From NCBI RefSeq assembly GCF_000304475.1, contig NC_018946.1:1-64000 (forward strand): a DNA stretch of 64,000 nucleotides, in the 5' to 3' direction. The translations under genes were made by a program, and so were the position numbers. The DNA is from Kazachstania africana CBS 2517. Lineage: Eukaryota; Ascomycota; Saccharomycetes; Saccharomycetales; Saccharomycetaceae. The notes beneath the pieces were generated by a model that worked only from the letters and a program-made list of their open reading frames with translations, was not told the DNA's origin and ran no database searches. Positions within the stretch are counted from its first letter, which is position 1. Each line of letters begins with the position of its first letter. Positions 1 to 37,310 of the stretch are shown piece by piece.

Positions 1-1440
1 CGAGATATCTCACTCGAAATACGGCGTCAGAGACATGATCCTGTCGTATAATGGATCTAATCACTGTCTCATAACATTATCTCGCTGCAAATATAACTCA
101 CTGCTCACTCCCTCTAGTCTACTCTCATTTTCGCTGATTGCTTTCCATATATTTTCCTCATCTTCACATACTTCCCTACTTTACATACTATCTTGGAATA
201 ATATTTTAATATCATCATTGAATACCACTTTTCCACTCTCCATCACTCTCTATTCTGTAAACACCTACTTTTCTCTTTTCCAATATTAACATTTACGCCA
301 ATCCGAAACGATATTTCTTCAACTTTACTTCGTCTTTTCCTGAAATATTAAAATAAAAATCAGGAACCCACTGACTAAACTATTACACACACGATACATC
401 CATATATAAATGACAAACTTGCCCTATTTCCTCTGAACTAATGGGAAAACTATTATTTTACTATCTCTACTATCAACTTATTCTATATTCGAATAATCGT
501 CTTTCTCTCGACTGATGATCCTGCATCATACATCCACATAAACTGTCCACACTCGACAGATTACGAAACATCTATTCCCATTTTACTACCGTCTACACTC
601 ATCGAGACACTCTCTTATATCTTCTCACCGTAAAACCTCGCACAATCGCTCTTCTTATAACTCCCCGAACAAACTCGCATTCCAATTTCATTTTCTTTTC
701 CCAGCGCGACGGAGAAAACTGATTCTCATTGAATTTATTTTTGAGAAAACCTCGCTCACAGGATTCTCCTTACTTTTCGCCCAGATTTTCACAGTGAGAG
801 AATACCGTACAGACAACACTTGAAAGATCTCGTGCGACCATTTCTGAGGAAACTTCTTTAATACTAATCTTTCAACCTTCTCACCTCAATACAATAATCA
901 ACACACACACTTTCTATCCAAAATACATTTAATTATTCCTGAACTACTCACCCGCTCCCTTTTCAATATCACTTACCTCTACATATTACACTTCCCTCTG
1001 CCATTCTTCTCTTCGCCTTTTTCTCTTTCGACTATTTTCTCGCGCAAACAGACCTCTCGAAATCTGCGCTTGATCTCAGAAGAAAAAATCTCAAATCTTC
1101 CCCCGCTCTGCGAGATCGTCTCGGCCAACTTTCCCCTGCGTAACTGTCTGAAACAACAAGACTGAAAATGATCATTTTGACATGACAATTTCCATTCCAC
1201 GTACATCTGAACCCACAAAATACAATGAAATCTACCTCATTTCATCACACTACATATATCTACAAACCATGATCATAGAACACTCTGCTATACACCATCT
1301 TTTCTATCTTATCACCGTCAACACTCTTACTCTGACCACCTCGCTCCCCCACCCATTTTATACCTCTGCTTATCTCTTTTTCACTGTCACAGTCTGCATA
1401 CTTATCATTTCAATCCACCTTCTTAAATACTACAAATAAA

Positions 1441-2234
1441 TCAACTTTATCAATCATAAACTGAAACAGGAATAACTTTACTTGACTTATATGTAATTGA
1501 TAAATGAACTCAAATGTCATTAATAATCATCTCTGACACTTCGGAAACTAACCATCCCATAAGCAATATCCTCATCGATAGATATCAACTAATCATTATT
1601 TCTACTTCCGAACATCCCTGTATCAATAAATATCAATTACGGAATCCTCCAAACCTTTAAATTCCCCTCCTTCAACTTTGATTCTGATNNNNNNNNNNNN
1701 NNNNNNNNNNNNNNNNNNNNNNNNNNNNNNNNNNNNNNNNNNNNNNNNNNNNNNNNNNNNNNNNNNNNNNNNNNNNNNNNNNNNNNNNNNNNNNNNNNNN
1801 NNNNNNNNNNNNNNNNNNNNNNNNNNNNNNNNNNNNNNNNNNNNNNNNNNNNNNNNNNNNNNNNNNNNNNNNNNNNNNNNNNNNNNNNNNNNNNNNNNNN
1901 NNNNNNNNNNNNNNNNNNNTCTTTTTTCTACTGTCACAGTCTCTATACTTATCATTTCTATCTACCTTCTTAAATACTCAAATAAATCAACTTTATCAAT
2001 CATAAACTGAAACAGGAATAACTTTACTTGACTTATATATAATTGATAAATGAACTCAAATGTCATTAATAATCATCTCTGACACTTCGGAAACTAACCA
2101 TCCCATAAGCAATATCCTCATCGATAGATATCAACTAATCATTATTTCTACTTCCGAACATCCCTGTATCAATAAATATCAATTACGGAATCCTCCAAAC
2201 CTTTAAATTCCCCTCCTTCAACTTTGATTCTGAT
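1441..2234. repeat. Direct repeat on both sides of an assembly gap
   Basis: Bases 1441-1688 and 1987-2234 match at all but one of 248 positions (offset 546), and the sequence just before each is also related. The gap lies between them. The second copy of the large duplication has this sequence once only, near 22190-22435. This is either a local tandem duplication or two unmerged ends of the same sequence left at an assembly gap. Confidence 0.9.
1689..1919. other. Assembly gap (231 N)
   Basis: A run of 231 undetermined bases. Open frames that cross it have no meaning. Confidence 0.99.
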
Positions 2235-2739
2235 TAAATCACAAATTCAGAGAAAACCATCTGTCAATATCTATCGCCAACGACATTCCGTTAAATTTAT
2301 TATTGAACTCTTTTCCTTCTGATATTCAACTTGATAGAACCTCTATCATTCTGAACATTTCAACAATTTCTTCATTATCAAAACCCTCTGTCCCATTTTT
2401 ATCTACTCACTTTACCCATTCGTAAATGAATGAATTCTTCGAACAACTTTGAACAGGCCACTTATGAACTCCGAATATTCTTATCATAACACAACACATC
2501 TACCAGAAACTCACGCTGTCATTCTTGTCAAATACCCTTTTCAATCGAACAGGATACAACAGGAGATCACCACTATTTTAACAAAAGAAACATTTTAATA
2601 AACCTAGCCTATCCACTCCAAGATGACAGATCTCAATCCTATTGACAACCAGTTTCTCTAATATATTCCCTCATATCATACAATGACATGACGCTAATAT
2701 GACTTGAAATTATTTCGACGTTTCTAATTTACAGATATG

Positions 2740-5280
2740 ACACATACGTCAACTCATTCTATATCGGATATATCTAACTAACTCACCATCAATTCAGAAT
2801 ATCTTTATCATTGATGGATATGAACATAATTAATCTGGAGACTCTTCGTTAACAACTTCTGAAAGAACACTTTCAAAATCTGAGAACATTAATCGTAAAT
2901 ATTTCCCTATATCTTTAATCTTAGTAACATTCGTTCAGACATTAACAGCGAATAAATCACTTCATTCAACATTAAATATATTTTACTAATCCACCATCTA
3001 TTTGGAATAACCTTATCATTGATTAATATGAATATAATTACTTGGGGAAGCCAACTATTATCTCCAACAACATAACTTCTGAAATGAGGTTTTCATAACT
3101 TGGACAGATGAATTTTAAATATTCTCCTTCTTATCAATAGAACCCTCTTTCAACAAACTTTCCCTCTCAGAAATGAATGTCATTGTACTATCGCGTGACA
3201 CTCCACTTCACATCACTAATAGATAATACTCATTTAATCAATAGAGACTTGTACCAGTCACAATAAAAATAATCACTCCTTGACACCTAGGAAGGTCCTG
3301 GTAAATCCATGGATCATTTTCAATGGTAGAATTATCCAATATTCGAATACTCTATCGTCTAAATTTGGGACATCCATTCTATGCCAGTTTAACCACTTAC
3401 TGTACTCATCTAATGACATAACATATTATGATCAAACTTTCCAATTTTCATCAACAACATTACTTCGAAAGAACAACGATATAACTTGGAACCACAGACT
3501 CAATAACTGTGATCTTGATATAATAAATTTACGAAAGCCTTTCTCTGTCATTCTTGTCATTCCCGTCAAATAACCCATATTTTATCTAACTGAAGAGAAT
3601 ATGAAGCTATTACTATTCATAACATGGGGAGAACGCCTTCGTATTTGACCTGTTTTACTCATCTCAAAGAATGATCGAGCTAAATTCTAATCACAGCCTT
3701 CACAGACATTCTGTCTAATTTCTTTCAATAACAATAACGATATCATCATTTAATTATGACATACACAACGTTCAACATTCTTATTCTCAAAACTAACATT
3801 AATATCACTTTCAAATCAATCTGTGACGTAACCCTATTATTGAACACACGATCGCATTCCACCAATGATAATTTACTAACTCAGCATCTAGTTGAAATAG
3901 CTTTATCTTTGATTGTCAGGGAACATAAATACTCGAAGAATTCAATTATTTTTCTAATAACATGATAACTTCTTAAATGACAGTCTCGAACCCTGGAAAG
4001 ATGAACCTTAAACATATTTTTCATCACTAACGTCATTCATAATAAGCGTTCTGAAGACTTCACCAACAGGCAACGTTCATTCCAGCATCTTTTTTTTGAA
4101 TAATAGGAATAGGCAATTCATCTTATCGTCTTCGTCCTTCCAGATACAAACGTTATCCAGCTTAATGAATACAAACCAGTGTCAACACTATCGTTGAGAA
4201 TAAATACATCCATTCAATTCTAACCTATACTTTACGAAAGACTATTGAAAACCAGCCTCGTCAATGCGCAATCTCAAATTCTGATCAAGCCAAATACAGA
4301 GATCAATTACCAACGAAGCTTCATGGCTACTTCTTATCGACATCTCGTCACTATTTCAACATCATTACTCAATTGCCAAAAGACTTCCCTAGCACATATT
4401 CAAGAAATTGACTAAAAAACTTGATTTTGACTCCTCTAGATTTGACAATTTTGTGAACTACATCACCTAACACCAACGTTTTAGATCTGTGCATACTTAT
4501 TGTACTAATATCATCAACTTTTTACTTTGAAATATTCCTAAGATCTCTGACATTGTCTTCTCGTTTTATCAATCCAAAAGGGCGCCATTATATAGGGATA
4601 ATTGAAATCAGGGAAGTTCACCAACGTAACCACTTGCTACTAATACAGCTTATCTTTATCAAAAATCTGTCAATTCGCTATTTTGGGCCTCTCCATCCAC
4701 TCTTCTTCCCCTTATCAAATTGATTGTACATTTGAGATCGATTGAATTGACGTCAAATCAGTGTAAACCGACTCTATAACCATGACTACTATCAAGTGAC
4801 CATCAAAGAATATGAATACTCAACTCTTCAACAAACAGTCATGTCAATTAACACTTGAACATCTATTTCATAGCTTCTTCTGGTATTCAGATCTCGAGGG
4901 AATCTACCTGAATAATCGTACTGATCTTGATACTTCAGGCTTCATTTTAATGACAATTGATAATAATTATCTTAATCCTAATCTAATTCGCATTCGTATC
5001 TGTTACACTCGTCACTTCCCTCTTCTCATCTCTCTTCCTTGTTTCTCGAACTAGGAATGAATTAACTTTTTTTTTTTCAAATTTCGATCTTCGAGAAAAA
5101 GAGACTTGATATAATTAATACAAAGGGAGAAACATATTAATCAAGTGAGAAATACAGCCATGTACACATCCATCCGACAATTGGGATACTGGACAGCGTA
5201 ACCACCCCAGTTCAACGGTTACAAAGCTCCAAACTACAGTCATCAACTTCAATTACACATATAAAATACACATCAAACTA
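2740..5280 (-). pseudogene. Decayed tandem protein repeats downstream of family A
   Basis: No long frame remains, but minus-strand translation gives related peptide units with stops and frameshifts. Near 2780-2900, 2990-3125 and 3880-4030 the units share a core of the form (K/R)F(I/M)(F/C)PGFE(T/N)VISEV(I/M)MLLE, followed by a second element of the form (I/L)(K/R)LFQ(I/L)D(G/A)ELV. Near 3280-3420 the minus strand reads without a stop for over 40 codons, including the piece WLNWHRMDVPNLDDRVFEYW. The alternation of short leucine/isoleucine-rich segments is compatible with leucine-rich repeats, but I cannot prove the family. The purine-rich sense strand explains the C-rich, G-poor plus strand. 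The region lies directly downstream of family A on the same strand, and a third locus at 35640-36941 keeps the same order, so it was probably the C-terminal part of that gene. Confidence 0.5.
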
Positions 5281-5285
5281 AACAT

Positions 5286-8200
5286 CTAACTCCCAAGAAT
5301 CCCCCTCCACTTATGAAAACAGACACCTAACACCACCACATAGACTGGACATTTCCCCCTCCTGTACGGAACTATCTCCATCATGTCCGTAATAAACAAA
5401 GGAAATATTCTGTAAGGGCTCACACCGTCCACCTCAATGACCTTGTTTACAATGTCCACATCTAACTCTGCTTCAAATGCCGCCCACAACATCAAAACCA
5501 GCACTCTTTAATAACCCTAAACTATATCAACGTCTATTTTCAAGAACAAATCGCCTCAACTCTACATGGTCACATAGGTAACAACCTAAAACTACCAAAA
5601 ACAACGGAAAGCTTCTTCATTGCAATTGACCTTACTCATAAGTTTTTTAACGAACAGAGGAAATATCCTGTAGTTCGAAACATTGTCAATCCTAAGGTCC
5701 TGTTCAATTATCTTCCTGTCAGCTTCAATCTCGAATATACACCAAAGTAACCACCATCAACTGCTCTACTTCTTTCCTTCAATATATTTAAAACATAATT
5801 CACCGTGTCACTCCCATAATAGTATTCCGCCAGTTCCTTCATCACTACCCTCTTGGGCTGCTCTAGAGTTTCTGGGTCTGTTATTGTTATGGTCTGTTCA
5901 CCAAGAAGAGCGTCCCGGAACCCAGTATCGATAAATGATCTGTGACCCTCATACCAGCTTTCACCTGTTGTAATTCTCCCTTGAATAACTAGGTCCATAA
6001 TATTCAGCTTTTTTCCTATTATTTCCTTCCACAGAAGCCTAAACACAACAATCAAATCAACATTCACCGGTATCAACTCCTCCACCAATGTAACCGACCA
6101 ACTGTAAAATCTGCAAAATTTGACATACATTTTCTTCAATTCATTCATATTTCTCAGATGACGGACAACGAATGGATGGCCTTCTTCTATATTCAATTCT
6201 GCTTGCTGAGAGATAAAGTATCTGGTGTCGACAGCAGCAAACAGCATGAGAAGCTCAGGTACTAATGCACCGACAAATTTCCTCTTCACTGTTTGACATC
6301 TACAGTCGTACTTCCAAGTAAAACACTCCCCACACAGCGCCTCTGGCTTTTTCATTATCCATCTCAAAGCTTTTGGTGGATAAATTTCAGAAAGCATGTT
6401 TTTCATTTCCTCATTCCAGCAAACCCTACAACGGCACCCAGGGATCTTCTACTGTCCGGTAATGCCCTCAGTATCCTCATTAGATGGCCCCTATCGTCAT
6501 TGTCTTCCCCCGTCTTATTACTTCGGTTGAACTTGTATACTCGATTTTGATTAATTACTCTTGTCACTTCTGTGGAAATCTGGTTTTCTCTCTCCCTGCT
6601 CTGACCGCAGCATCTGGCATGGCCCTCGAATGGAAAGGCGTAGAAGGCAGCATCCTGGTTCGGGATATAAATATCCCGTTGAGATCCATGCACCAGACAT
6701 GAGAAGTTTTGTCATCTTATTGATGAGTTTGATTACCTTTGTTCTGATCTCAGCTACAACGGCATCTTCCGGCCTCCCCCATTTCAAATAATGTGGAGCA
6801 GCATGGCATTGACGGCAGAATTTTCAATACACTATTTGTCATTGGATCTTCCTGCATAAGGTCAATGTTATTATTACCTAGAACGGTCATATAATCAGTT
6901 ACAGGACTTCCGAAAGTAAACCATTCTCTCAAAGCTGTTTGACACGCATCAAATTCTATGTGAAGATCATTCTTAGTCGGTGAAATAAAATTTAGCGACA
7001 GAGTCTTGGTACCCAAACTGACAGAGCCCTTTTCCAAATCTGTTGTGACAAAGTTACGGGCTGCCATGTCCTCCTCTTTCATGACTTTCGAGTATAACGT
7101 TTTGAACTATCCATAAAAGTGTGCTCCCATGTTGACATCATCTACAACCCTCTGTGATTCCTCCTCGTTGATCTCTGAAAAACCAAACACCTTGATAAAC
7201 AATTTGATAGCATCCAGTATGTGTCTGTAGGCTCTAACATGGAGTCGTGGACAGGGTTGCCCATGTGATACCCGTTGGTTGAAGTTGAAGCAGCAGGAAT
7301 GAACCCATCTCGTGAAATACTCGTGGCAACCCCCTTCGATCAATAATCATAAATTGTATCGTACTAAATAGAGACGCATTGCCCTTCATTTTCAAGATTG
7401 TTCAAAGCTTCTATTCTATGTTGTGGCAAAAAGTCCTTGTCTCTGAGAAATGATAATCTGTGCCCATTAATCGAAAAATAAAGAGGGTACGCCAACCGCC
7501 TTCCGTATTCTTCAACAGAGCGTTTAGTTGAATCCTTGATGAATGCATTTCTACCAACATGAAAGTCCCTGCCAAAGTATAGCTTCCCATTTCTTCTAGC
7601 ATTGGCATAAGCTTCCTTTAAAATCTTTCTGTAAAATGCTCTCATTTCCTCTGCATTATATGACGTAATAATATCGTAGTCTTCTTCAGTAAAATTGAAG
7701 GAGCTGGTATCTATAATCGTCGAGCTGACTCTATTATCTCTTGTCTGTTCTACGCTGTCGAACACATCATTCATTTCGGGCATTTCTTCCTTCCTTGGAT
7801 GTGTCCTTTTCAGGTAAATGTAGTTTCTTCCCTTTAAGGAGACACGATGGCATCTTTCCACAAATGTTCTTTTAAGTCTCCTTTTGTTTCTTGTACATAG
7901 CGTGCTTCCTTTATGGAGGATAGTGCCATCGTACATCTCACAGAATTGGTAAGCCTGATGGTCCACCAATTTTGCAGCTCCCCCAGAGATGTATTCAAAG
8001 ATTACAGTTCCAGATCTGTCGATTACGTCATATTGTTGTAATACTTGTGCGTTTAATAGCTCTATCTTTGGCTTAGAAAGTCATCGATGTAACGACTGAT
8101 TTTGCAATAATTTTACGATTTCTTTAATCAACAATCCATCCTTCCACAAGGGAAGGACGTGCGTTAATAGTAACTTTCATTGATTGACTCTCATATTTAG

Positions 8201-8450
8201 CTGTGCTTATTGTTACTTTTCTCGATAATGTTGATGAATGGAACAACTTCTTCAAGATCAGATCTTCGCTTTTATCTTTTTCGTAGAAAAAACAAAATTT
8301 TGTAGTGACGCGTCAGTAACAGTAGATCCGTGATATGTAGAGGATAAAGTCCTGATCTCTGCTCCATTCATAGGTGCAATCTGTGTTAGTACCAATAGAA
8401 GACGATGAACTAAAAAGTGCCACGTGAGTTCGCAGGAGAACAGAGGTCAT
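5286..8450 (-). pseudogene. Family A, copy 1: large unrecognised protein gene, broken
   Basis: I do not recognise this protein. The frame starts at an ATG at 8448-8450, about 85 bases downstream of a TATA box, and can be followed in pieces to 5286, close to 1,050 codons. Visible lesions: TGA at 8316-8318, a shift near 8270, a shift near 8130, TGA at 8081-8083, TAG at 7364-7366, a one-base loss just after it, TAG at 7107-7109, and shifts near 6680, 6430 and 5740. Both TAG codons are TAT (Tyr) in the partial copy at 12431-13440, which shows independent decay. The longest clean pieces are 7364-8080 and 5708-6440. A Cys-rich stretch near 6300-6440 (RCRVCW, LCGEC, DCRC) could bind a metal. The last part contains two diverged units of the form VSxYRIFPLF(I/V), near 5660 and 5420. 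The product was probably intracellular: I see no signal peptide. Its neighbours are a small membrane protein and a killer-like secreted protein. Confidence 0.8.
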
Positions 8451-8660
8451 GGCCAATCGCTCTTAACCAAGGCGATGGGACGCTAGAGTCTGGTGTAGCC
8501 TCGTCTATTAAAGACCATATTACGAGCTTTCCTTATATAAGAATCTAGAACCGTACTATTTAATTTTATACATACTTCATAAACATCTAAACTATAGCTT
8601 TATTTCAGTAAAACAAGTATAAACCGCCAAGAAGTACTTATTCAATGTATAGGTGCATGT
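8451..8660 (-). promoter_or_regulatory. Family A promoter
   Basis: On the minus strand a TATATAA box lies at about 8533-8540, roughly 85 bases before the ATG at 8450. The stretch from the box to the ATG, including the 'gcgatgggacgctagagtct' element at 8471-8490, is recognisable again at 29664-29760 and 36942-37310. It is therefore the conserved 5' region of the family rather than chance sequence. Confidence 0.6.
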
Positions 8661-8703
8661 TTTAATCAGAGTTTAAAAACGAAATAAAGCCTACGTACAC
8701 AAC

Positions 8704-9154
8704 CTATAATATCCAAAGGAAGGCACTTGCCATAGCCAACATCAACAAAGTAAAGATTAAACTGAGGAAAAAATCTTTCTTTCCTTTAAAGGTACCCAGC
8801 AATGTTTTAAAGCCTTTTTGCGGTGAAATTAATATCACAAATGTCATCCACGCACTGAAGATATACAATGTTAGAAATAAACAAACGAATGATTTGATAA
8901 TCACGTTTCTAAGATCCTTGCGAGCGGCCAATTTTTCTTCGTACGAGGAAAATGACTTCATTCTAAAAATATTGGAATATATAAAGACAGTACCAAAGAA
9001 ACAAGATATCAAAATTAGAATAACAGCTAATATAACCTGTTACTTTGTATAGAGAAATATACTTCAGACAGTTTGCCTTCTCTGTTATAAATGATTCCAT
9101 AAAATGTTCAGTACTGATAACAGATTTATATATCTCAGTTGCCCACCTCCCCAT
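8704..9154 (-). pseudogene. Small multi-pass membrane protein, apparently frameshifted
   Basis: Two overlapping minus-strand frames join into one plausible protein of about 140-150 residues. The 5' part starts at an ATG at 9154; the second frame, from about 9035 down to 8704, takes over after a one-base shift near 9040. The protein would have three hydrophobic segments: the start of the second frame, rich in V, I and L; a central one around FVCLFLTLYIFSAW; and a C-terminal one around FTLLMLAMASAFLWIL. A charged loop (EEKLAARKD) lies between the first two. No family is recognised. It sits between family A and the killer-like gene, divergent from the latter. Small membrane proteins beside toxin genes are often immunity proteins in other systems, but here that is only an inference. 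The second frame might be expressed alone from the Met in its loop (FRMKSF). Confidence 0.35.
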
Positions 9155-9972
9155 TCGGTGTGTGCAATATTATTGGAACACTAAAATTGTGCGGATAAAG
9201 AAACTTTGGCTGCATGAAAAAAATCATCTGACTTTCTGAGCACCAGTGTAATTGAATGGTATTTTTCGACATGCATGATTATCACTTTCATTAGGAAGGC
9301 CAAGAAAGATTTCTATTATGTATGCATGTGCTTCTATTTTTGCAACCACATTTATTAAACCATAATAGTTTCAAAGATTAGCTTTGGCTGGACACATCCG
9401 CCGTACGCAACAATATGGCATGCTACTCTAGTACCAAGAAAAGAGGCAATAATAAATAACTTATATCGCGAAGAAGTGCAGTAGATAAATACGCCCATAA
9501 AGACTTTTTCATAAAGTTATTGAAGCTTAAAAGATTTTTCGGTAAAAATAAAAAAAAAGACTGTATGCTTGCATATTGTTATGAGTATTCGCAAAAATAT
9601 TAAACTCTCATTGGAATTACTGAGCTTGAAATCAACTACGGAAAAAGACACAACATTCGTAGGGCTATTGTCTCAACGGTTGCTACTCTTTTCAGTCGAT
9701 GTGATAAATCACTTCAATAATGAAGCCTAAGCAACAAAACAAACAATTCTACATGTTGCTTTCGCGGGATGTATCCACGAACTAACTGTTTTCGCACATT
9801 TTTATCGTTAGCATCGATTACAAAAGAAATTGAAAATTCATAAAATATTGTTATATAAATCCTCTGTATTATTAACTTTGAGGCATGCTACCGCTTAATG
9901 TAATTTGAATATTTTTTTAGAGATTCAAACAAGAAATACATTCTGAAATCCAAGATTCTATAACTATCCAGT
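9155..9972 (+). promoter_or_regulatory. Upstream region of the killer-like gene
   Basis: AT-rich intergenic DNA with no gene. A good TATA box (TATATAAA) lies at 9852-9859, about 115 bases before the ATG at 9973, a usual yeast spacing. I see no other site I can name. Confidence 0.55.
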
Positions 9973-10944
9973 ATGTTTACAAAAGTCCGAACTTACATCA
10001 TCCCTATTTGTATCACTTTATGTTTACTTCAATCAATAACATTGGTAGATACTCTTGTATCCGCTTCTGGTGTAGCTACACCTGATGAATATATTGAGCT
10101 TGCAAAAAGAAGTATCAAAAATGCTTCCCTCGGGGCAGGATTGGGCATCTCTGGTGCGCTAGCTGGTGTTGCTGGTTATTTTACCAAAACTATCTGCGCT
10201 GCAGGTGGTGCCATGGCAACTGTTTTCGGGACATTGGAAGGAAAGTTGGCCTGTGCTGCTTCTGCTGCTGTCTTCTTGGTACTCAGTGCTGTTACTGGTG
10301 CCTTGGCTGCTGGAGATACTACTGCCATTACAAAACGTGATTTATCATCAAGTATCTATACTGGATATCTTTATCACAATTTAACGGGTATTCATTATAG
10401 CTTAAATTCAGCCCCAATCGAGTTGACTCCTTACTACAATGATGTGGTATCCGTATTGATCGAGAAGGCAAATATTACCAATGTAAAAGTCGCTGACCAT
10501 ATTGCTGCTAACAACGAAACTTTGAATATTAAGCGTGATGAATCCATTCTAATTCACTCACTACACTTTGAACACAATGGCTATAAAATGCATGGTTTCC
10601 ATTTTGATAACACTATTGAGTCTTACCTGGAAGCATTTGTCTCATATAATGAAAACAGCACGGAAAGCTTGCAAAAGCGTGGGACAGCAACTCTTGATTG
10701 GGCCTCTTTTACAGAGGCTTGGTCTGATACGCAACAAGAAGAAGAAGCTAGTGGAAATGCATCTGAAGAAATTGATAATGGTTGGGAAGATTGGGACTTC
10801 GCAAAATGGATTGAACACGATACCGGTAATAAATACTGCCTAGGTGTTGAATGGACGTCCGACAGATCCGAATTTATGGCGGGAGAATTGTACTTCAACG
10901 CATACGGTGGTGTGGATGGAGAATGCTGGGACATATTGGAGTAA
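9973..10944 (+). CDS. Secreted, Kex2-processed protein with killer-preprotoxin-like layout
   Basis: An intact 323-residue protein. A hydrophobic N-terminus (residues 7-30) is a likely secretion signal. Lys-Arg pairs at 45-46, 121-122, 188-189 and 235-236 are potential Kex2 sites. Residues 51-113 are Gly/Ala-rich and hydrophobic, in two stretches able to span or disturb a membrane (around GLGISGALAGVAGYF and ACAASAAVFLVLSAVTGA). Putative N-glycosylation sites occur at 136, 168, 181, 229 and 263. The C-terminal part after 236 is acidic and Trp-rich and ends in a motif GELYFNAYGGVDGECWD, with cysteines at 289 and 318. A signal, a hydrophobic subunit and several dibasic sites are the layout of yeast killer preprotoxins, but I cannot tie it to a named killer toxin. 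Two decayed paralogues (13641-14000, 18345-19394) share the family. It is the only intact member here and has its own TATA box. An alternative role is a pheromone-like or cell-wall secreted protein. Confidence 0.75.
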   Translation: MFTKVRTYIIPICITLCLLQSITLVDTLVSASGVATPDEYIELAKRSIKNASLGAGLGISGALAGVAGYFTKTICAAGGAMATVFGTLEGKLACAASAAVFLVLSAVTGALAAGDTTAITKRDLSSSIYTGYLYHNLTGIHYSLNSAPIELTPYYNDVVSVLIEKANITNVKVADHIAANNETLNIKRDESILIHSLHFEHNGYKMHGFHFDNTIESYLEAFVSYNENSTESLQKRGTATLDWASFTEAWSDTQQEEEASGNASEEIDNGWEDWDFAKWIEHDTGNKYCLGVEWTSDRSEFMAGELYFNAYGGVDGECWDILE

Positions 10945-11752
10945 TTTTATTAGTTCATTCATATGTGCTTTATTTTTCTAACTTCTTTGATTTTTTTAAT
11001 TTTTTCTCAATTCTATTCTAATGAGTGACTAGCTATATAGTCAATCATATATGTTGTTGGCAAAATGTAGAGTTTTTTTTTTCAATTACTAGTAATGCCT
11101 TTGGCTTAAGTATAGTTATTTCCTCTGATATAAAACGTTAGTTACAGTCGCAGGCAGCAACGTTATCACTTATCCTTGAAACGCAAGATAGTTTACTGAA
11201 GACCACTGTTCTCCGAAGCAAGCTCAGGCTACTTCATAGCAGCGATTTGGATAACGACTTATCTGGTAGGCGTATTTCTAAATTGAAAGGGTCTCATGAG
11301 ATACACATCTACCTGGACCACCATAATTTCAATTAGTTCCATGATAGGACTAGCTACAACTTTTTTATTTTAAATATTACGGAACACTCCAACACTTGGT
11401 TCTCAGACTGCGGGGGAGAGCGCTACAACACTGCAAAATTTAGTCCATTGGCATTTACAATTTTATGCTCCATCAGCCTTAATATATGTGTATGGCTATG
11501 AAACGTTATTCTTGGCCACTTAGATGTAACTCTTTGCTAAACTTGAATGGACATCGCCAGCAGAGAAGCAATTTTTTATAGTTACCATTTGAGCCTTTTT
11601 GTCACCGATTTCTACCAAACTGAATGCAATCGTCATAAAGTAGCAGGAGCAAAGTTGTGGCTTGTTGCATATGAGAGGGTTTGATAAAAGAGCTCCCAAT
11701 TTGTTGGTGTATATCAACGTGAGCAAATTCTAGCAGATAAATGACTATGGTT
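10945..11752. other. Intergenic, no gene recognised
   Basis: AT-rich DNA between the killer-like gene and a family-A fragment. A short minus-strand frame at 11520-11726 has no recognisable feature. A run of T at about 11073-11082 is the only simple-sequence element. Confidence 0.5.
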
Positions 11753-12300
11753 TCATGCAGAAGACTTTAAGCTTTGCATCCTGATTTGCTTGCTAGGAAT
11801 ACTTAAAATATCAGCATGCATGAAGGAGAGTGGCATCTTTTTTGCTAAAACAGCTAAAGGGTTTGATCCATCATCAGAAAAATCGAAGAGTTTCAAAACT
11901 GGATGAAGAGCTCTTTCTTGCTCTATATCATCATTAAATTCTTCTAAATCTGGATTTTCCTCGAGGTTAGGATCAATTCTTCTCGAGTATATGTATTCTC
12001 TGGACCTCAAAGCAACACGATGGCATGACTCTGGTAAATGTTTTCTCAATTTGCTTTTTACTTCTTTTACATAATCTACTTCCTTGTAGAAAATACGGCC
12101 GTCCTTCATTTCACAAAGTTCATAGGGGCAATGATCTACCATTGCTTCAAGTTCCTTAGAGACGTAAGCAAAAGCGCTGTAGAAGATGCCTCGGTGAGGT
12201 CATAAGCTCGTAAAACTTGTTGATTTAAGACTTCTTTTTTTTCTCTTCAGAGAACGCTTGTGTGAGTCTTAATTTTTATCCCATAGGCATGTCAAATGAT
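11753..12300 (-). pseudogene. Family A, copy 2b: N-terminal third only
   Basis: The clean piece starts with ATG at 12142 and runs 129 codons to 11753. It matches the copy-1 segment near 7970-7750 (shared pattern VDHxxYxxCEMxDG, then CHRV-L-R-YIY). Upstream of 12142 the homology continues to about 12300 in shifted frames: one shift near 12180 and another in an A-run near 12240. At its 3' end the similarity stops near 11870, and the rest of the frame to 11753 is unrelated, so the gene is truncated. It lies downstream, on the same strand, of the middle part at 12431-13440, which is the wrong order for one gene. The two are therefore remnants of two tandem copies or of a rearrangement. Confidence 0.75.
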
Positions 12301-12430
12301 ACGTCAATATGGCTTCTCTTAATTTTCTTTATTACTTTAGAGCTGAAGTTATAAATTGTCTCATTGCTAGCCTCCCGTTAAGCAGAAAATTTTCAGTAGT
12401 AAATATCTAGTGCATCTACTCAGATCTTCT

Positions 12431-13440
12431 CTACTTCAGATTCACGCATAACAAAAATAAGAAGTTCGACAATAGACTATTTATGATGGATCTGCCAGTG
12501 ACGAGGAATTTATCTTGGTTTGTGTATATTTTACGTCCCGTTGAGATCCATACACTAGCCATGAGAAGTTTTGTCATCTTATTGATAAGTTTGATGACCT
12601 TTGTTCTGATCTCAGATACACAGGCATCTTCCGGCCTCCTCCATTTGAAATAATGTGGGGCAGCATGGCATTGCGATAATATTTTGAATATACTATTTGT
12701 CATGGGTCTTCCTGCATAAGCTCAAAGTTTTTATTACCTAGGACGGTCATATAAGCAGTTACAGGGCTGCCAAAAGTAAACCACACTCTCAAAGCTGTTT
12801 GACACGTATCGAATTCTATGTGAAGATCATTCTTAATCCGTGATATAAAATTTAGCGACAGAGTCTTGGTACCCAAACTGACAGAGCCCTTTTCCAAATC
12901 TGTTGTGACAAAGTTACGGGCTGCTATGACCTCCTCGTTCATGACTTTCGAGTATAACGTTCTGAAATATCCATAAAAATGTCTTCCCATGTTGACGTCA
13001 TCTACAACCCTCTGGGATTCCTCCTCGTTAATTCCTGAAAAAACCGAACACCTTGATAAACAATTTGGTAGCATCCAGTATGTTTCTGTACGCTATAACA
13101 TGGAGTCGTGGACAGAGATGCCCATATGACACCCATTCGTTGAAGTTGAAGCAGCAGGAATTAACCCATCTCGTGAAATACTCGTGGCAACCCCCTTCGG
13201 TCAATAAATCATAAATTTTATCGTAATAAATAGAGACGTATTGGTCTTCATTTTCAAGGTTGTTCAAGGCTTCAATTCTATGTTGTGGCAAAAATCTTTG
13301 TCTTTGAGAAATGATAATTTGTGTCCATTAATCAAAATATAAAGCGGGTAAGCCAACCGTCTTCCGTATTCTTCAACAGTTTGTTTAGTCAAATCCTTGA
13401 TTAATGCATTACCAGTATAAAAGTTTAAGGTAGATATTCA
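12431..13440 (-). pseudogene. Family A, copy 2a: middle part only
   Basis: This minus-strand fragment aligns with about 6660-7560 of copy 1. It begins at the element (A/N)(F/L)IKDxTKxxVEEYGRRLAYPLY and continues through HRIEALNNLENE, GGCHEYFTRWV, NEEESQRVVDDVNMG and ARNFVTTDLEKGSVSLG to KLINKMTKLLM. Frames change near 13290 and 13040, and a stop occurs near 12700. It keeps Tyr codons at two places where copy 1 has TAG. The similarity ends near 12540; the remaining frame to 12431 is unrelated. Both ends are missing, so it is a dead fragment. Confidence 0.8.
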
Positions 13441-19394: not shown

Positions 19395-20584
19395 TTTTTT
19401 CGAAATGCATAATTATCATTTGATAACATTGTCACAGTACCTTGGTAAATATGCTCCGCTGTCATTGTTCTCTGTTGTTGTTTTGTTGTCCAGACCATTT
19501 TAAATGTGCTTTATTTTTCATCATTTTGTATATCTATTATACACTTAAATAAAAGATCATAATCAAAGTTTTTACCTCCAATAGTATATGTATCGAATTT
19601 AGTGGAATATCAATCTTTGGCATGTAAGTTCTTCAATCCGACTAAATCATTCTTGGAATAAAGAATGTTACTAAGATTAGAAGGACGTTCCTTGATAGCA
19701 TTTAATCCCTAGAACAGTATTTTGGAAATAGCGCGGCTTACAAAGATTATGTAGGCTTGTAGAAGACGTTCGTTTAACTTTACTTTTTCGTATTTGCTAA
19801 GTTTTGAAGGATATTGTTTTTGAAAGATTACAATAAATTTATTGACTAGCTCAATAGTTGTCACAACGCGTCTGCTCTGACAATCGGCATATAATAATTT
19901 ACTTTTGTATTCCAAATTTCAAATTTCATTATGATAGGTAAAGCTCTATGTTTGTGGCCATTGTGCAGACATCTCAGTCTGCACTTTTTAAGCGATCTTC
20001 AAAATTTGTATATTCTAAAACGCTATCTGGAAACAGACTACTTATAACTTACCACACTCTGGTTCTGTTTCTACTACTATCCAGTTATGGATGTCCGATG
20101 TTCCTGCTTCTGTTTCCTAATCTTTTTCCCAACTATAATATAATAAAGTGAAACTGCATCTAAATATATTGTGTATATATGTCTACCATATCAAATCTCA
20201 TTACTTTTCAACACAGTGCTCGCTTCCATAGAAAATTGTTTCGAGAGGTTAAAGTCAAGGGATTTGTTGAGCCGAAACTCAACAGTTCAATATTCCTTAT
20301 GGGGATTTTTTTGCACTGTAGCATTGTGAGAGTTTTGTTCAATATTTATATTTATTGCTGAAAACTTGTATTCACTATATTTAGATTGTTATCGAGATCC
20401 TTTTACGACTAAAAGTTGAAACAAGGCACAGAAAATCATTTTCTATTTACAGAATTATTAATTCGAATGGAGAATGAACAACACTACCTTCCTGTTGAAG
20501 TTACTATCGCTTTCTCCAATACTTAATTTTTAATTTGGCTAACAAGAAAAAAGCTATTCAAAATGACTTAGTACAACAACAGCA
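19395..20584. other. Intergenic, no gene recognised
   Basis: AT-rich DNA with short frames only (19709-19915 minus, 19948-20151 plus, 20179-20361 plus), none with a recognisable motif. Confidence 0.5.
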
Positions 20585-20965
20585 TCAGTTACAATCATCT
20601 CCGATTAAGGGCAGCTTTTGGAGCATGGCTTTCAAGTTTATAGCATCCCAAGGCAGGTATTCTGCAACTGTAATCCCAACAATAGTGCAATCTTTTTTAA
20701 CTGATTGACCAGGTCTATGACATTCTGCATACTTAATTCGCCTTGAGCATACCCATACTTATCAGGTGCATCTGGACGTGAAAATAACAGTGAATGGAAT
20801 TTGGCCTCATTCAATACATCCAGATCAATGTGGATTGCAAGTTTTTAATTTTTCTATCATGAATCCATTGGGGAACAGATTTGGCTCCGGCTTGAACTTC
20901 CTTTGCAGAGCATGTAGAAACGTTATACCTGGTTAAAAATTCTTCTTCATGGTCAAATGGATCGT
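20585..20965 (-). pseudogene. Arginase/ureohydrolase-family gene, 3' part, broken and cut by a gap
   Basis: The minus strand enters from the gap at 20966 with a frame containing STCSAKEVQAG. After a shift near 20837 it reads HIDLDVLNEAKFHSLLF, the metal-binding HxDxDxL signature of arginase, agmatinase and formiminoglutamase enzymes. After another shift near 20680 it reads VGITVAEYLPWDA and ends with a stop at 20585-20587. The order (metal motif, then the (V/I)(V/I)G(I/L)T(V/I)AE(Y)xP strand) is that of the C-terminal third of a ureohydrolase. It differs from yeast Car1, whose corresponding part reads more like a classical arginase, so another substrate is likely. The 5' part is lost in or beyond the gap. 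Two frameshifts make it a pseudogene. Confidence 0.7.
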
Positions 20966-20985
20966 NNNNNNNNNNNNNNNNNNNN
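20966..20985. other. Assembly gap (20 N)
   Basis: Twenty undetermined bases exactly at the left edge of duplication copy 2. A fixed-length 20-N run usually marks a join of unknown size, so the true neighbour of 20986 is uncertain. Confidence 0.97.
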
Positions 20986-23900
20986 CACTTTTCCACTCTT
21001 CCATCACTCTCTATTCTGTAAACACCTACTTTTTCTCTTTTCCAATATTAACATTTACGCCAATCCGAAACGATATTTCTTCAACTTTACTTCGTCTTTT
21101 TTAAAAATATTAAAATAAAAATCAGGAAACCACTGACTAAACTATGACAAACTTGCCCTATTCCTCTGAACTAAGGGGAAAACTATTATTTTACTATCTC
21201 TATTATCAATTTATTCTATATTCGAATAATCGTCTTTCTCTGTACTGATGATCCTGAATATGACATCATACATTCACATAAACTGTCCACACTCGACAGA
21301 TTTCTATACATTTAAACTCATCTTAAGACCTTCTCTACTCATCGAGATACTGTCTTATATCCTCTCACTCTGACACCTCGCACAATCGCTCTTCTCACAA
21401 CTCCCCGAACAAACTCGCATTCGAATTTCATTTTCTTTTCCCAGCGCGACGGAGAAAACTGATTCTCATTGAATTTATTTTGAGAAAACCTCGCTCACAG
21501 GATTCTCCTTATTTTGCGCCTAGATTTTCACAGTGAGAGAATACCGTACAGACAACACTTGAAAGATCTCGTGCGACCATTTCTGAGGAAACCCCTTTAA
21601 TAGTAATCTTTCAATGTTCTAAACTCAATACAATAATCGACACACACACTTTCTATCCAAAATACATTTAATTATTCCTGAACTACTCACCCGCTCCCTT
21701 TTCAATATCACTTACCTCTACATATTACACTTCCCTCTGCCATTCTTCTCTTCGCTTTTTTCTCTTTCGAGTATTTCCTCGCGCAAACAGACCTCTCGAA
21801 ATCTACGCTCGATCTCAGAAGAAAAAATCTCAAATCTTCCCCCGTTCTGCGAGATCCTCTCGGCCAACTTTCCCCTGCGTAACTGTCTGAAACAACAAGA
21901 CTGAAAATGATCATTTTGACATGACAATTTCCATTCCACGTACACCTGAACCCACAAAATACAATGAAATCTACCTCATTTCATCACACTACATATATCT
22001 ACAAACCATGATCATAGAACACTCTGCTATACACCATCTTTTCTATCTTATCACCGTCAACACTCTTACTCTGACCACCTCGCTCCCCCACCCATTTTAT
22101 ACCTCTGCTTATCTCTTTTTTCACTGTCACAGTCTGCATACTTATCATTTCAATCCACCTTCTTAAATACTCAAATAAATCAACTATATCAATCATAAAC
22201 TGAAACGACATAAATTTTACATGACTTATATACAATTGATACTCAGATGAACTCAAATATCATTCATAATCATCTCTGATACTTCCTTAACTAACCATTT
22301 CATAGTCACCATGCTCAGCGATTAATATCAACTGACCACTATTTCTACTTCCGAACATCTCTTTCCCAAAAACTGTCAACCACAGAATTATCCAAACTTT
22401 TCACTTCTACTCCGTCAACCTTGATTCTGATTAAATGAAAAGTTCAGAGAAAACCATCTGTCAATATCTATCGCCAACTACATTCCGCTAAATTTATTAT
22501 TGAACTCTTTTCCTTCTGATATTCCACTTGATAGACCCTCTATCATTCTGAAAGATTCTGAACGGCTCAACAATTTCTTCTCTACCAACACCCTCTGTCC
22601 CACTTTAATCTACTCACTTTACCCATTCGTAAATGGATGAATTCTTCGAACAACTTTGGACAGGCCACGCATGAACTCAGATCATTCTTGTCATAATACA
22701 ACACATCTACCAGAATCTCACGCTGTCATTCTTGTCAAATACCCCCCTTTCAATCGAACAAGATACAACAGGAGATCACCACTATTTTAACAAAAGAAAC
22801 ATTTTAATAAACCTAGCCTCTCCACGCCAAGAATGACAGATCTCAATCCTATTGACAACCAGTTTCTCTAATATATTCCCTCATATCATACAATGACATG
22901 ACACTAATATGACTTGAAATTATTTCAACGTTTCTAATTTAAGGATATGACACATACGTTAACTGACTCTATATTGAATATGTCTAAATAATTCACCACC
23001 TTTTTAGAATATCTTTATCATTGATGGATATGAACATAATTAATCGGGAGGCTCTTCATTAACAACTTCTGAAAGAACACTGTCAAAATCTGAGAACATT
23101 AATCGTAAATATTTCACTGTATCTTTAATCTTATTAACCTTCGTTCAGACATTAACACCGAATAAATCATCTCACTTTAAATTGAATATATCTAACTAAT
23201 TTACCACCGATCTATAATAATTTTGCCATTCAATGACATGAACATAATTACTTGGGGAAGCCAACTATTATCTCCAACAACATGACTTCTGAAATGAGGT
23301 TTTCATAACTTGGAAAGATGAATTTTAAATACTCTCCTTCTTACCAATAGAACCCTCTTTCAACAAACTTTCCCTCTCAGAAATGAATGTCATTGTACTA
23401 TCGCGTGACACTCCACTTCACATCACTAATAGATAATACTCATTTAATCAATAGAGACTTGTACCAGTCACAATAAAAATAATCACTCCTTGACACCTAG
23501 GAAGGTCCTGGTAAATCCATGGATCATTTTCAATGGTAGAATTATCCAATATTCGAATACTCTATCGTCTAAATTTGGGACATCCATTCTATGCCAGTTT
23601 AACCACTTACTGTACTCATCTAATGACATAACATATTATGATCAAACTTTCCAATTTTCATCAACAACATTACTTCCAAAGAACAACATACAACCTGGAA
23701 CATTTGAACCACAAACTCAATTACTGTGACCTTGATATAATAAATTTACGAAAGCCTTTCTCTGTCATTCTTGTCATTCCCGCCAAATAAACCATTCTTG
23801 TCTAACTGGATAGAATAAGAGGCTATTATTATTTGTAACCTGAGGAAACATTTTCGACCTGACCTGTTTTACTCATCTCAAAGAATAATCGATCTAAATT

Positions 23901-26128
23901 CTATTCACTGCCCTCTGAGACAGTCTGTCTAATTTCTTTCAATAACAGTCACGATATCATCATCTACTTATGACATACACAACGTTCAAGCGTCTTTTTC
24001 TCAGAGCTAAGACTAATATTGCTTTCAAATGAATCTGAGACTTAACCCCATTATTGAACGCACCATCGCATTCCACTGAATTATAATTTATTGATTTGCC
24101 ATGTATTTGGAGTAACCTCATTATTGATTGTCATGGAACATAACTACTCGATGAATCCAATTATTTTTCGAATAACATGATAACTTCTTAAATGACAGTC
24201 TCGAACCTCTAAAGATGAACATTAAACATATTTTTCATCACAAGCGTCATTTATAAGAGGCGTTCTGAACACTCCACCAGCAGGTGTCATTCATTCCATC
24301 ATCTCTTTGTTTGTAATAATAGGAATAGACGCGTCATATTGTCATCTTCATTCTTCCACATACAGATATTATCCATTTTAATGATCACAAACCAGTATTA
24401 ACCCTATCGTTGAGAATAAATACAACCAGTGTATTCTAACCTGTACTTTACAAAATAGGATCGGAAACCAGTCGGGAAATACGCAACCCCAAATTCTCAT
24501 CAAACCAAATACGCCGATCACTTACCAGTGAGCCTTCATTAACACTGACTGTCAAAGTCTGATCACTATTTCTACACCATTATTCATTGCCTGAAGACCT
24601 TCCTTGAACATAACTTACCAGATGACTAAATAACTTCATTTCGATACCACCAGATCTGATGATTTTGTGAATTACATCACCTAACAGTAACGTTCTAGAT
24701 CTATACGTACTTATTTTACTATTACTGGCTTATCTTTACTTTGAAATATCTCTAAGATCTCTGACATTGTCTTCTCCTTTTATCAATTCCAAAGGCTACC
24801 GTTATATAGGGGTAATTGAAATCAGGGCAGTCCAATGTGACCACTTGCTATTAATACAACTTATTTTTATCAAAAATCTGTCAATTCGCTATTTTGGGCC
24901 TCTATCATCCACTCTTCTTCCCCTTATCAAATTGATTGTACATTTCAGATCGATTGAATTGACGTCAAATCATTGTAAACCGACTCTATAACCATGACTA
25001 CATTCAATTGGCGTTTAAGTAATATGAATACTCAACTTTTTAACGCTCGATCATGTCAACTAACACTTGAACAACCCAGCTCAAGGCTTCCTCTGGTATT
25101 CAGATCTCCAGTAAATCTAGGTGAATAATCGTACTGACCTCGATACTTCAGACTTCATTTTAATGACAATTGACCTTAATTACCCTAGTCCTAGTCTAAT
25201 TCGCATTTTTATCTGTTATACTCGTCAATCATCACTTCCCTCTTCTCACCTCTCTTCCTTGTTTCTTCAACTAGGAATAATTTTTTTTTCAAATTTCGAT
25301 CCTCGAGAAAAAGAGACTTGATATAATTAATACAAAGGGAGAAACATATTAATCAAGTGAGAAATACAGCCATGTACACATCCATCCGACAATTGGGATA
25401 CTGGACAGCGTAACCACCCCAGTTCAACGGTCACAAAGCTTCAAACTACAGTCATCAACTTCAATTACACATATAAAATACACATCAAACTAAACATCTA
25501 ACTCCCAAGAATCCCCCTCCACTTATGAAAGCAGACACCTAACACCACCACATAGACTGGACATTTCCTCCTCCTGTACGGAACTATCTCCATCATGTCC
25601 CTGATAAACAAAGGAAATATGCTGTAAGGGCTCACGCCCTCCACCTCAATGACCTTGTTTACAATGTCCACATCTAACTCTGCTTCAAATACCGCCCACA
25701 ACACCAAAACCAGCACTCTTTAATAACCCTAAACTATATCAACGTCTATTTTCAAGAACAAATCGCCTCAACTCAACATGCTCACATAGGTAACAACCTA
25801 AAACTACCAAAAGCAACGGACAAGCTTCTTCCTTGTAATTGACCTTACTCATAAGTTTTTTAACGAACAGAGGAAATATCCCGTAGTTCGAAACATTGTC
25901 GATCCTAAGGTCCTGTTCAATTATCTTCCTGTCAGCTTCGATCTCGAATATACATCAAAATAACACTATCAACTGCTCTACTTCCTTCCTTTCAATATAT
26001 TTAAAAAATGACTTACCCCCCTCATTTTTCCATAATGGTACCCTACCAGTTCCTTCATTACAACCCTCTCGGGCTGTTTAAGGGTTTCTGGGTCTGTTAT
26101 TGTTATGAGCTGTTCGCCAAGAAGGGCA
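20986..26128. repeat. Segmental duplication, copy 2
   Basis: Same orientation as copy 1 (231-5910). It starts right at the 20-N gap and ends where the family-A frame diverges near 26128. It carries a single version of the segment that is tandem around the gap in copy 1. The left boundary may be set by the gap rather than by biology. Confidence 0.93.
22950..25480 (-). pseudogene. Decayed tandem protein repeats, copy 2
   Basis: Counterpart of 2740-5280. The same repeat units lie near 22990-23110, 23205-23340 and 24100-24260, and the over-40-codon open minus-strand stretch occurs at 23490-23630 within the 332-bp identical patch. Stops and indels differ from copy 1 at several places, so it has decayed further since the duplication. 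Confidence 0.5.
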
Positions 26129-26150
26129 CATTTTCCAATACGTATACCCC
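25498..26150 (-). pseudogene. Family A, copy 3: C-terminal end only
   Basis: Matches the last part of copy 1 (5286-5910). The final 72-codon unit (25498-25716) keeps the VSPYSIFPLF element, and upstream the related VSNYGIFPLFV unit near 25870 is followed by a broken ITDPETLKQPERVVMKELVGY stretch at 25978-26163. The frame ends in unrelated sequence after 26128. No promoter or 5' part is present. Confidence 0.75.
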
Positions 26151-35639: not shown

Positions 35640-36740
35640 AAAATCTCCAGAATCATAGTCTTACAACCTGGAGGGGTAAAGTTATACATAATACTTTTAG
35701 CATCATCCTTAGTAATAAGCCAGTGTTCCGTGTTTATTCTGTCCACAGACAAACCTCATTATATCATCTTCTTATTTTGTCATGTTCTTGGTTAATATAT
35801 TGATTCATTGTCATCGAACATTTGGATACCAATAGTGTTCAGCTTATTGAAGGAAGGCTAGTCTTCCAATATAATATGTACTAATAATAATTTATTAACT
35901 CTGATCTGTACTTTAGAAGGTACTATCGGGAAACAGTTTCATGAATCACATACACGCAAGTATTATCAACTTAACTAGGCCAAACAAATATCAGAGATTA
36001 TCAGTATGACATTCCATAACAGCCTAATCCATTTCCAAAAATCGGTATGCTTGCATCTTTAATTCAGCAATAATAGTTGTTTTCGTGTTTGGGTACCTTA
36101 TTATTCATCAACGATATAACTCAAAAAAACAGGAAAGTAATTTCGCTCAAGCAGATTTAGATTCAGAGTTTGCAAACATTTTATTCAGAATCACTATTGC
36201 ATGTCTATCGAGCCATGTCGCCATCTCTTTGCTGTGTAATATTCAACCTCATGTACCATCAAATTGCCATTCATTCATTTCAAAATTTTAATATTATACT
36301 GCGATGAACCCAAATCTAATGGTATGGATAATATCCGATTAATCCTTGGAGATGGCACTATTGAATGTGGAAAAATTTGACTAGCTCAATTTAGTACTTC
36401 TGTAGATAAACTGGATAGTAAGGGTTACTAATTAAAACAGCAAACACACCAGTAACCAGTGATCTACAGCAATCCTATTCCTACGTATTTTCCTTATACA
36501 AATCCCTACTTATTCATCAATTGTGGATTATACCTTTTCAATGGTACTCCAAGCATGGCAGACCGATATAACATCACACAGCAATACATTCAGAAAATAG
36601 TTTTATGGTTCGTTCCATCAATATTCCAACTTCCACAACAAAGAGCGCCCGGTAATAGTAGCTTTTATTGACTAATCCTGACGCCTAGATATACCAATTA
36701 TTTACTGTTCTCGATGACCTTTAACAATGCAACAAGTTCT
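35640..36740 (-). pseudogene. Strongly decayed relic of the family-A repeat region
   Basis: Scattered similarity to the repeat blocks at 2740-5280 and 22950-25480. Around 35910-36005, 'ctgtactttagaaggtactatcgggaaac' followed by 'ggccaaacaaatatcagagattatcag' parallels 4225-4310 and 24440-24525. The plus strand has the same C-rich, G-poor look. It precedes, on the same strand order as copy 1, a family-A N-terminus at 36747-36941. Confidence 0.4.
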
Positions 36741-36746
36741 TCAAGA

Positions 36747-36941
36747 TCAGATCTTCGCTCTTATCTCCCTATTCCAGAAAAAAAGAAAATTTTGTAATGA
36801 CGTGTTAACAAGAGTTAATGTACGATAAAAGGATGGTAAGCTTCTGTCCCATTGATAAGTGTAACATGTATTAGTAATAGTAAAAGATGATGAGTTAAAA
36901 TATGCTAGGTGACTTCGCAGAAGAACAGAACTCAGGGCCAA
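36747..36941 (-). pseudogene. Family A, N-terminal fragment with lost start codon
   Basis: A 64-codon minus-strand frame aligned with 8260-8450 of copy 1. Shared elements include SVLLR(S/T)H at the start, a Ser-rich patch, YxWxR, and TSLQNF near the end. Where copy 1 has its ATG this copy has CTG, so it has no normal start. The frame ends at the same TGA that follows the corresponding frame in copy 1 near 8260, after which both continue in the -1 frame. The middle of the gene is missing, and the decayed repeat region follows directly. Confidence 0.75.
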
Positions 36942-37310
36942 TCGCTCTTAATCAAAGCGGTGGGAGACCAGAGTCTTCTATAGCTCTATCTGCTAAAGAA
37001 GATACTACGAGTTACATCAGGACAAATTATACTAGATGTTCGAATACAGATGGTGGCTACCTTTATGTTTAAACGGAATGATAGCTCTTCCGTAAAAACA
37101 ATGATATTGAATGCTGGACATAAAATGACGGTTGCGTAAGACCATACTGCGAGATATTCTTATATAGGAAGGTAGAACTATTACTGCTTAAACTTATATG
37201 TAATTCATGAACGTCTAATCAGTAGCTTTATTTCAGTAAATCAACGAGTATATACCGCCAAGTACCTCGCAGTTTCGGAAAAGTTTGAATTACATATTCT
37301 ATGTATAGGT
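36942..37310 (-). promoter_or_regulatory. Family-A promoter relic
   Basis: Matches 8451-8660 upstream of copy 1, including 'ggccaatcgctctta', the 'ccagagtct' element, a 'ttatata' box near 37160 and 'tttatttcagtaaa' near 37226. An insertion of about 100 bases (about 37020-37130) separates the two halves. Confidence 0.65.

What the first reader, a model, noticed from the sequence alone, without database searches (positions are those of the whole stretch)
5286..13440. Unrecognised large gene family (family A) with at least four decayed copies
A protein of about 1,050 codons or more, with a Cys-rich segment and repeated C-terminal units, is present in broken form at 5286-8450, 11753-12300, 12431-13440, 25498-26150 and 36747-36941. 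I cannot place it in a known family. Copy 1 has TAG at 7364 and 7107 where copy 2a has TAT, so the copies decayed independently and the gene was intact when it was duplicated.
Basis: partly seen in the sequence, partly recalled or inferred. Interest (0 to 1): 0.8.

Follow-up and report, generated by a model that had tools for sequence, protein, structure and literature searches.

The report
Decayed yeast telomere-end helicase genes
The broken genes are remains of a helicase gene family that sits at chromosome ends in this yeast, distant relatives of the Y' elements of baker's yeast, so the kind is known even though this branch had not been labelled as such.

Summary
The window is the left end of a Kazachstania africana chromosome. 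Family A belongs to the Y'-element helicase family: Sir1-type ORC-binding domain, family-specific N-domain, DEAD and Helicase_C domains, in the order of the S. cerevisiae Y' helicase, with a weakly supported Cys motif near the C-terminus. It was missed because window copy 1 has lost about 655 codons that hold the whole helicase core, and copy 2b stops before it; the core survives on contig C5. I list 23 fragments genome-wide; 22 lie within 50 kb of a contig end (14 of 24 ends) and 21 of those 22 point toward the telomere. No intact full-length copy was found. Copy 1 and the C6 right-end copy share the deletion junction and one of the two cited TAGs, so an already broken copy spread. "Copy 2" is pieces of at least two copies. 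A strand-skewed terminal element caps at least 15 of 24 contig ends; its second window copy, with copy 3, looks like an internalised chromosome end. Y' repeats are already reported in Naumovozyma castellii. New member of a known kind; the most provocative side-find is an open 261-aa ORF joining the ORC-binding domain to the Y' N-domain without a helicase.

The parts
5289..5507 (-). copy 1, C-terminal unit 2 (end of the gene, next to the terminal element)
   Evidence: tblastn: same unit at 25501-25719 and on C5 left at 4933-5151
5595..5756 (-). copy 1, C-terminal unit 1, related to unit 2 (46% over 41 aa)
5711..6448 (-). copy 1, C-terminal region with the Cys-rich motif (CxxC...CxC)
   Evidence: 74% aa identity with C5 left, 81% with C5 right; Cys motif aligns with the S. 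cerevisiae Y' C-terminus only weakly (hhalign E 0.0011, probability 20%)
6449..6667 (-). copy 1, stretch just after the lost helicase core
   Evidence: blastn 6103-6667 to C5 right 919456-920021, 86%
6667..6673 (-). junction of the central deletion (about 655 codons, DEAD and Helicase_C lost); shared with the C6 right-end copy
6673..8183 (-). copy 1, ORC-binding (Sir1-type) domain and Y'-family N-domain; stops at 7364 and 7107, frameshifts
   Evidence: Pfam Sir1 E 5.9e-5, just under the curated cut-off; P0005 by tblastn; family profile E 6e-28 for 7367-8080
8106..8526 (-). 5' end and upstream flank of the gene, repeated at 36.6 kb and elsewhere
   Evidence: blastn 71% to 36596-37011
11912..12246 (-). 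diverged fragment of the start of the gene (ORC-binding region); a different copy from 12536-13425
   Evidence: tblastn 40-42% to copy 1 residues 3-114; weak against relatives on its own
12536..13425 (-). copy 2b, N-domain piece
   Evidence: blastn 89.6% to 6674-7566; family profile E 1e-10 for 12703-13092
12426..12563 (+). small inverted piece of the same gene at the end of copy 2b
   Evidence: tblastn 76% to C5 ORF residues 177-222
25501..26127 (-). copy 3, C-terminal remnant
   Evidence: blastn 92-93% to 5006-5911
36613..37011 (-). 5' end plus upstream flank only
   Evidence: blastn 74% to C7 right, 71% to copy 1
1..5285 (.). C-rich, strand-skewed terminal element; gap of N at 1689-1919
   Evidence: GC skew to -0.53; repeated at chromosome ends
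20000..25497 (.). second copy of the terminal element (matching part from about 20986), now internal, abutting copy 3

Best explanation
Family A is the K. africana branch of the Y'-element helicase family, now decayed. Shown here: homology to the S. cerevisiae Y' helicase inside and outside the helicase core; same domain order; mostly subtelomeric location; orientation toward the telomere; every long copy found is broken; one broken copy and its lesions are shared by two chromosome ends. Inferred: the element spread between ends by subtelomeric recombination (gene conversion or break-induced replication); the intact protein was an ATP-dependent helicase that its Sir1-type domain may have tethered to ORC (Orc1) near telomeres; it helped its own end-to-end spread or recombinational telomere upkeep; source copies were under selection until recently and are now lost or lie in unassembled ends.
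For: C5 left ORF (811 aa): DEAD E 1.1e-6, Helicase_C E 4.1e-13. S288C Y' helicase P0010 vs this ORF: 670 aa, 23%, E 8e-32. With helicase cores cut off: ORF residues 1-440 vs P0010 1-650, 57 bits, 0 of 500 shuffles reach it; a profile built without K. africana and S. cerevisiae sequences hits P0010 1-650 at E 3e-25 and window 7367-8080 at 6e-28. P0010, P0096 and P0005 carry Sir1, DEAD, Helicase_C in that order. 21 of 22 subtelomeric fragments point to the telomere, sign test p 1.1e-5, fragments not independent. Shared junction and stop, and an identity step from 83-88% to 98.3%, between copy 1 and C6R.
Against: None of the six window pieces tested reaches P0010 pairwise above its shuffles; the link runs through relatives and through C5. 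The window Sir1 match is just under Pfam's cut-off (23.9 vs 24 bits). The Cys-motif alignment is weak. The C-terminal units have no hit in the S. cerevisiae C-terminus. The 36-bp repeats of S. cerevisiae Y' (PMC13177704 passage) are not among the arrays found in the window. The C5 ORF departs from relatives at the Walker A lysine and motif III (read), so even the longest open stretch is probably inactive. Telomeric repeats and ARS were not tested.
Confidence: 0.93

Rival explanations
1. A truly new subtelomeric gene family unrelated to Y', as first proposed.
For: Window pieces alone give only a borderline Sir1 match; pairwise they do not reach P0010.
Against: The same family's C5 copy aligns with the Y' helicase over 670 aa, and the non-helicase part matches independently.
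Confidence: 0.03
2. Homologous to Y' only because both captured an ordinary DEAD-box helicase; the rest is unrelated.
For: Against PDB sequences the C5 ORF finds generic DEAD-box proteins.
Against: Residues outside the helicase core match P0010, P0096 and P0005 with 0 of 500 shuffles reaching the score in each case, and the Sir1 domain is shared.
Confidence: 0.02
3. An autonomous transposon family with its own transposase or reverse transcriptase.
For: Many dispersed, decayed copies, one of them internal (C2:669 kb).
Against: No transposase or reverse transcriptase domain in the Pfam scans of the pieces and of complete relatives; 22 of 23 fragments are within 50 kb of a contig end and 21 of 22 share orientation.
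Confidence: 0.02

Closest known systems
S. cerevisiae Y'-element ATP-dependent helicase (Y'-Help1/YRF1 group; P0010, 1758 aa)
   Same: Sir1, N-domain, DEAD, Helicase_C in the same order; repeated at chromosome ends; gene pointing to the telomere (orientation in S. cerevisiae recalled).
   Different: About 23% identity; no 36-bp repeat array found in the window; a strand-skewed terminal element lies between gene and contig end; all long copies found are broken.
Zygotorulaspora mrakii HG535_0A00110 (P0002, 1099 aa) and unnamed P0005 (1445 aa)
   Same: Closest intact-looking relatives: 34-38% identity over 809-853 aa of the C5 ORF.
   Different: Open reading frames; P0002 as recorded lacks a Sir1 match.
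Y' subtelomeric repeats of Naumovozyma castellii
   Same: Called Y' repeats outside Saccharomyces; siRNAs map to them (PMC7528652 passages; PMC5499181 passage).
   Different: No N. castellii sequence was compared here.
Sir1/KOS silencing proteins
   Same: ORC-binding domain PF11603.
   Different: No helicase in Sir1 (recalled); compared only through the Pfam model.

Membership tests
Y'-element helicase | SF2 helicase core (DEAD + Helicase_C) | tested here: met
   C5 left ORF and C2 right DEAD piece; absent from the window copies through deletion or truncation
Y'-element helicase | N-terminal Sir1-type ORC-binding domain upstream of the helicase | tested here: met
   window 7367-8080 E 5.9e-5 (just below cut-off); C8 3.9e-26, C12 1.1e-27; relatives and P0010
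Y'-element helicase | Homology to Y' protein outside the helicase core | tested here: met
   profile E 3e-25; 0 of 500 shuffles
Y'-element helicase | C-terminal Cys motif | tested here: inconclusive
   hhalign E 0.0011, probability 20%
Y'-element helicase | Repeated, subtelomeric, gene pointing to the telomere | tested here: met
   22 of 23 fragments within 50 kb of a contig end; 21 of 22 toward it; the Y' orientation itself is recalled
Y'-element helicase | 36-bp repeat array | tested here: not met
   no such array among 5 rows found in the window; other copies not scanned. Not treated as defining: P0005-like relatives were not scanned either
Y'-element helicase | Flanking telomeric repeats and ARS | not tested
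   no search was made; contigs may stop short of telomeres
Y'-element helicase | Helicase activity or induction in telomerase-minus survivors | not testable with these tools
   needs experiment
Sir1/KOS | Stand-alone ORC-binding protein acting in silencing | tested here: inconclusive
   C8 ORF has the domain and no detected helicase, but its post-domain part matches the Y' N-domain; no Sir1/KOS sequence was compared

The most novel reading that the evidence does not exclude
The Sir1/KOS silencing proteins may be domesticated N-termini of Y'-type elements. The K. africana C8 ORF joins the ORC-binding domain to the Y'-specific N-domain with no helicase, as an intermediate would; a chromosome-end element may thus have given yeast its ORC-binding silencing factor. 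The direction of descent is untested; the reverse (Y' capturing Sir1) fits equally.
Probability: 0.13. Interest if true: 0.75.

Novelty: new member of a known kind. Interest (0 to 1): 0.38.

Why it matters
[quoted passage not shown] Homologs in Kazachstania and Zygotorulaspora (the latter outside the genome-duplicated clade; recalled) suggest that the element is older than Saccharomyces, and give a second genome in which to follow its spread and decay. The shared ORC-binding domain ties a subtelomeric element to the silencing machinery.

Tried and rejected
Pfam on six window proteins: one borderline Sir1 match for family A. PDB sequence searches: the C5 ORF finds generic DEAD-box helicases; the C8 ORF and the ORC-binding profile found no Sir1 chain (the only hits, 4o8m E 0.2 and 3fhg E 0.0056, I judge chance). 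Two structure predictions had mean pLDDT 47 and 53, so no fold search was run. One search is invalid: gapped alignment rows overwrote protein sequences; redone, and no number is used. The list of 23 fragments was typed by hand, merging neighbouring hits. Left out: C6:40975 (E 0.02; long open frame with LIM-like Cys motifs, by eye) and helicase-only hits inside long open frames (C3:439896, C3:1209224, C5:233105, C2:168588, C7:164216), taken as ordinary helicases. Genome searches score only the best candidates, so the count is a lower bound.

Literature: ten searches. None of the papers listed appeared, from listing or passages, to describe this family in K. africana. KAFR_0G03860 and HG535_0A00110 had 0 occurrences in the 10 of 42 papers listed, but that search asked for two terms, so a paper holding one of these names alone would not show. 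The word Y' cannot be searched, and most subscription papers are not held. Of the papers cited I saw passages only.

Full report
Where it is. The window is C7:1-64000 in an 11.13-Mb genome of 12 contigs. The copy near the right end of C7 corresponds to KAFR_0G03860 of Kazachstania africana CBS 2517, recorded on a contig of 812,636 bases, which is the length of C7. So the window is one end of a K. africana chromosome.

What is there. Fragments of one gene family lie on the - strand at 5289-8183, 11912-12246, 12536-13425 and 25501-26127, and the 5' end with its flank at 36613-37011. But 11753-12300 and 12431-13440 are not one copy: the first holds the start of the gene, from a diverged relative, placed downstream of a later part; 12426-12563 is a small inverted piece.

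What it is. Pfam on the window pieces gives one borderline match, Sir1 ORC-binding, in 7367-8080 (E 5.9e-5, 23.9 bits, cut-off 24). Relatives on C8 and C12 match it at 3.9e-26 and 1.1e-27. The C5 left-end copy holds an 811-aa open stretch with DEAD and Helicase_C. Protein searches found Z. mrakii P0002 and P0003, the unnamed P0004 (Sir1 E 2.5e-5) and P0005, 1445 aa with Sir1, DEAD and Helicase_C. The S288C Y' helicase P0010, fetched with a recalled bait, has the same domains in the same order and aligns with the C5 ORF over 670 aa at E 8e-32. With helicase cores cut off, ORF residues 1-440 match P0010 1-650 at 57 bits, 0 of 500 shuffles reaching that; a profile of five relatives, none from K. 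africana or S. cerevisiae, hits P0010 1-650 at E 3e-25, window 7367-8080 at 6e-28, 12703-13092 at 1e-10, 6753-7106 at 3e-10, 13031-13327 and 7110-7346 at 2e-3 each. Against this: 11756-12199 alone reaches only E 110 at that database size and rests on its likeness to copy 1; none of the six window pieces beats its shuffles against P0010 directly; the Cys motif aligns weakly.

Why it was missed. Near 6667-6673 copy 1 jumps from the counterpart of C5 ORF residue ~150 to that of ~805, losing DEAD (450-594) and Helicase_C (669-769). Copy 2b ends before the core.

History. Copy 1 and the C6 right-end copy share the junction and the TAG at 7107; the TAG at 7364 is in copy 1 alone of the copies aligned there. 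They are 98.3% identical (627 of 638) over the last part but 82.6-87.6% upstream, where each is about as close to the C7 right copy: a recombination boundary. dN/dS is 0.15-0.85 in the 17 of 18 pairs that could be computed; the highest includes a frameshifted stretch, one value rests on near-saturated dS, and broken copies dilute the signal. So constraint preceded decay. I found no intact full-length copy. The C6 copy runs off its contig end, so intact copies in unassembled ends remain possible. The longest open stretch (C5) departs from relatives at the Walker A lysine and motif III (read by eye), and its N-terminal part is replaced by unrelated sequence.

Distribution. Of 23 fragments, 22 lie within 50 kb of a contig end, on 14 of 24 ends; 21 of the 22 point to the telomere, C3 right being the exception; C2:669 kb is internal. 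Copies are related, so p 1.1e-5 overstates independence. The strand-skewed sequence at 1-5285 (GC skew to -0.53) recurs at 20.99-25.5 kb and near at least 15 of 24 contig ends (C1 L/R, C3 L/R, C4 L/R, C5 L/R, C6 L, C7 L/R, C8 L, C9 L, C10 R, C11 L), on the + strand at left and the - strand at right ends (C4 and C10 lengths; tally by hand). It abuts the 3' end of the gene at window 5285 and 25497 and at C5:4929. The stretch 20-26 kb therefore looks like an old chromosome end now internal.

How it probably works. For S. cerevisiae, the cloned Y' ORF showed helicase activity and the protein is expressed in telomerase-minus survivors, while removal of all Y' elements had no evident effect on growth or telomere function (PMC13177704 and PMC11042809 passages). 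By homology an intact member here would be an ATP-dependent helicase, possibly tethered to ORC by its Sir1-type domain; the last step is inferred and untested. Spread by recombination is supported by the copy 1/C6 mosaic.

Noticed in passing
window 1-5285 and 20986-25497: C-rich, strand-skewed terminal element (GC skew to -0.53) found near at least 15 of 24 contig ends, with a few internal copies; no function assigned.
   Followed up: partly
window 9973-10944 (+); L031:3606-4499 (-); L035:3704-4906 (-): Secreted-looking proteins with DUF5341 matches (30.3, 47.7 and 19.1 bits; cut-off 25) beside family A copies on three chromosome ends. [quoted passage not shown] africana (PMC7888664 passages); identity not tested.
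   Followed up: partly
L028:5076-5858 (+), that is C8:721075-721857: Open 261-aa ORF: Sir1-type domain (E 3.9e-26) plus Y' N-domain, no helicase seen downstream.
   Followed up: partly
C2:669463-671064: Decayed helicase-family fragment far inside contig C2, about 670 kb from the nearer end: perhaps an old fusion or inversion point.
   Followed up: no
window 27713-28786 (+) and 30690-32027 (-): Beta-mannosyltransferase piece (BMT, E 6e-62) and Hyphal_reg_CWP adhesin N-terminus (E 2.9e-52).
   Followed up: no
window 43582-45393 (-): Hpf1_C-type cell-wall protein with a 147-bp tandem repeat, 5.2 copies at 43843-44613.
   Followed up: no
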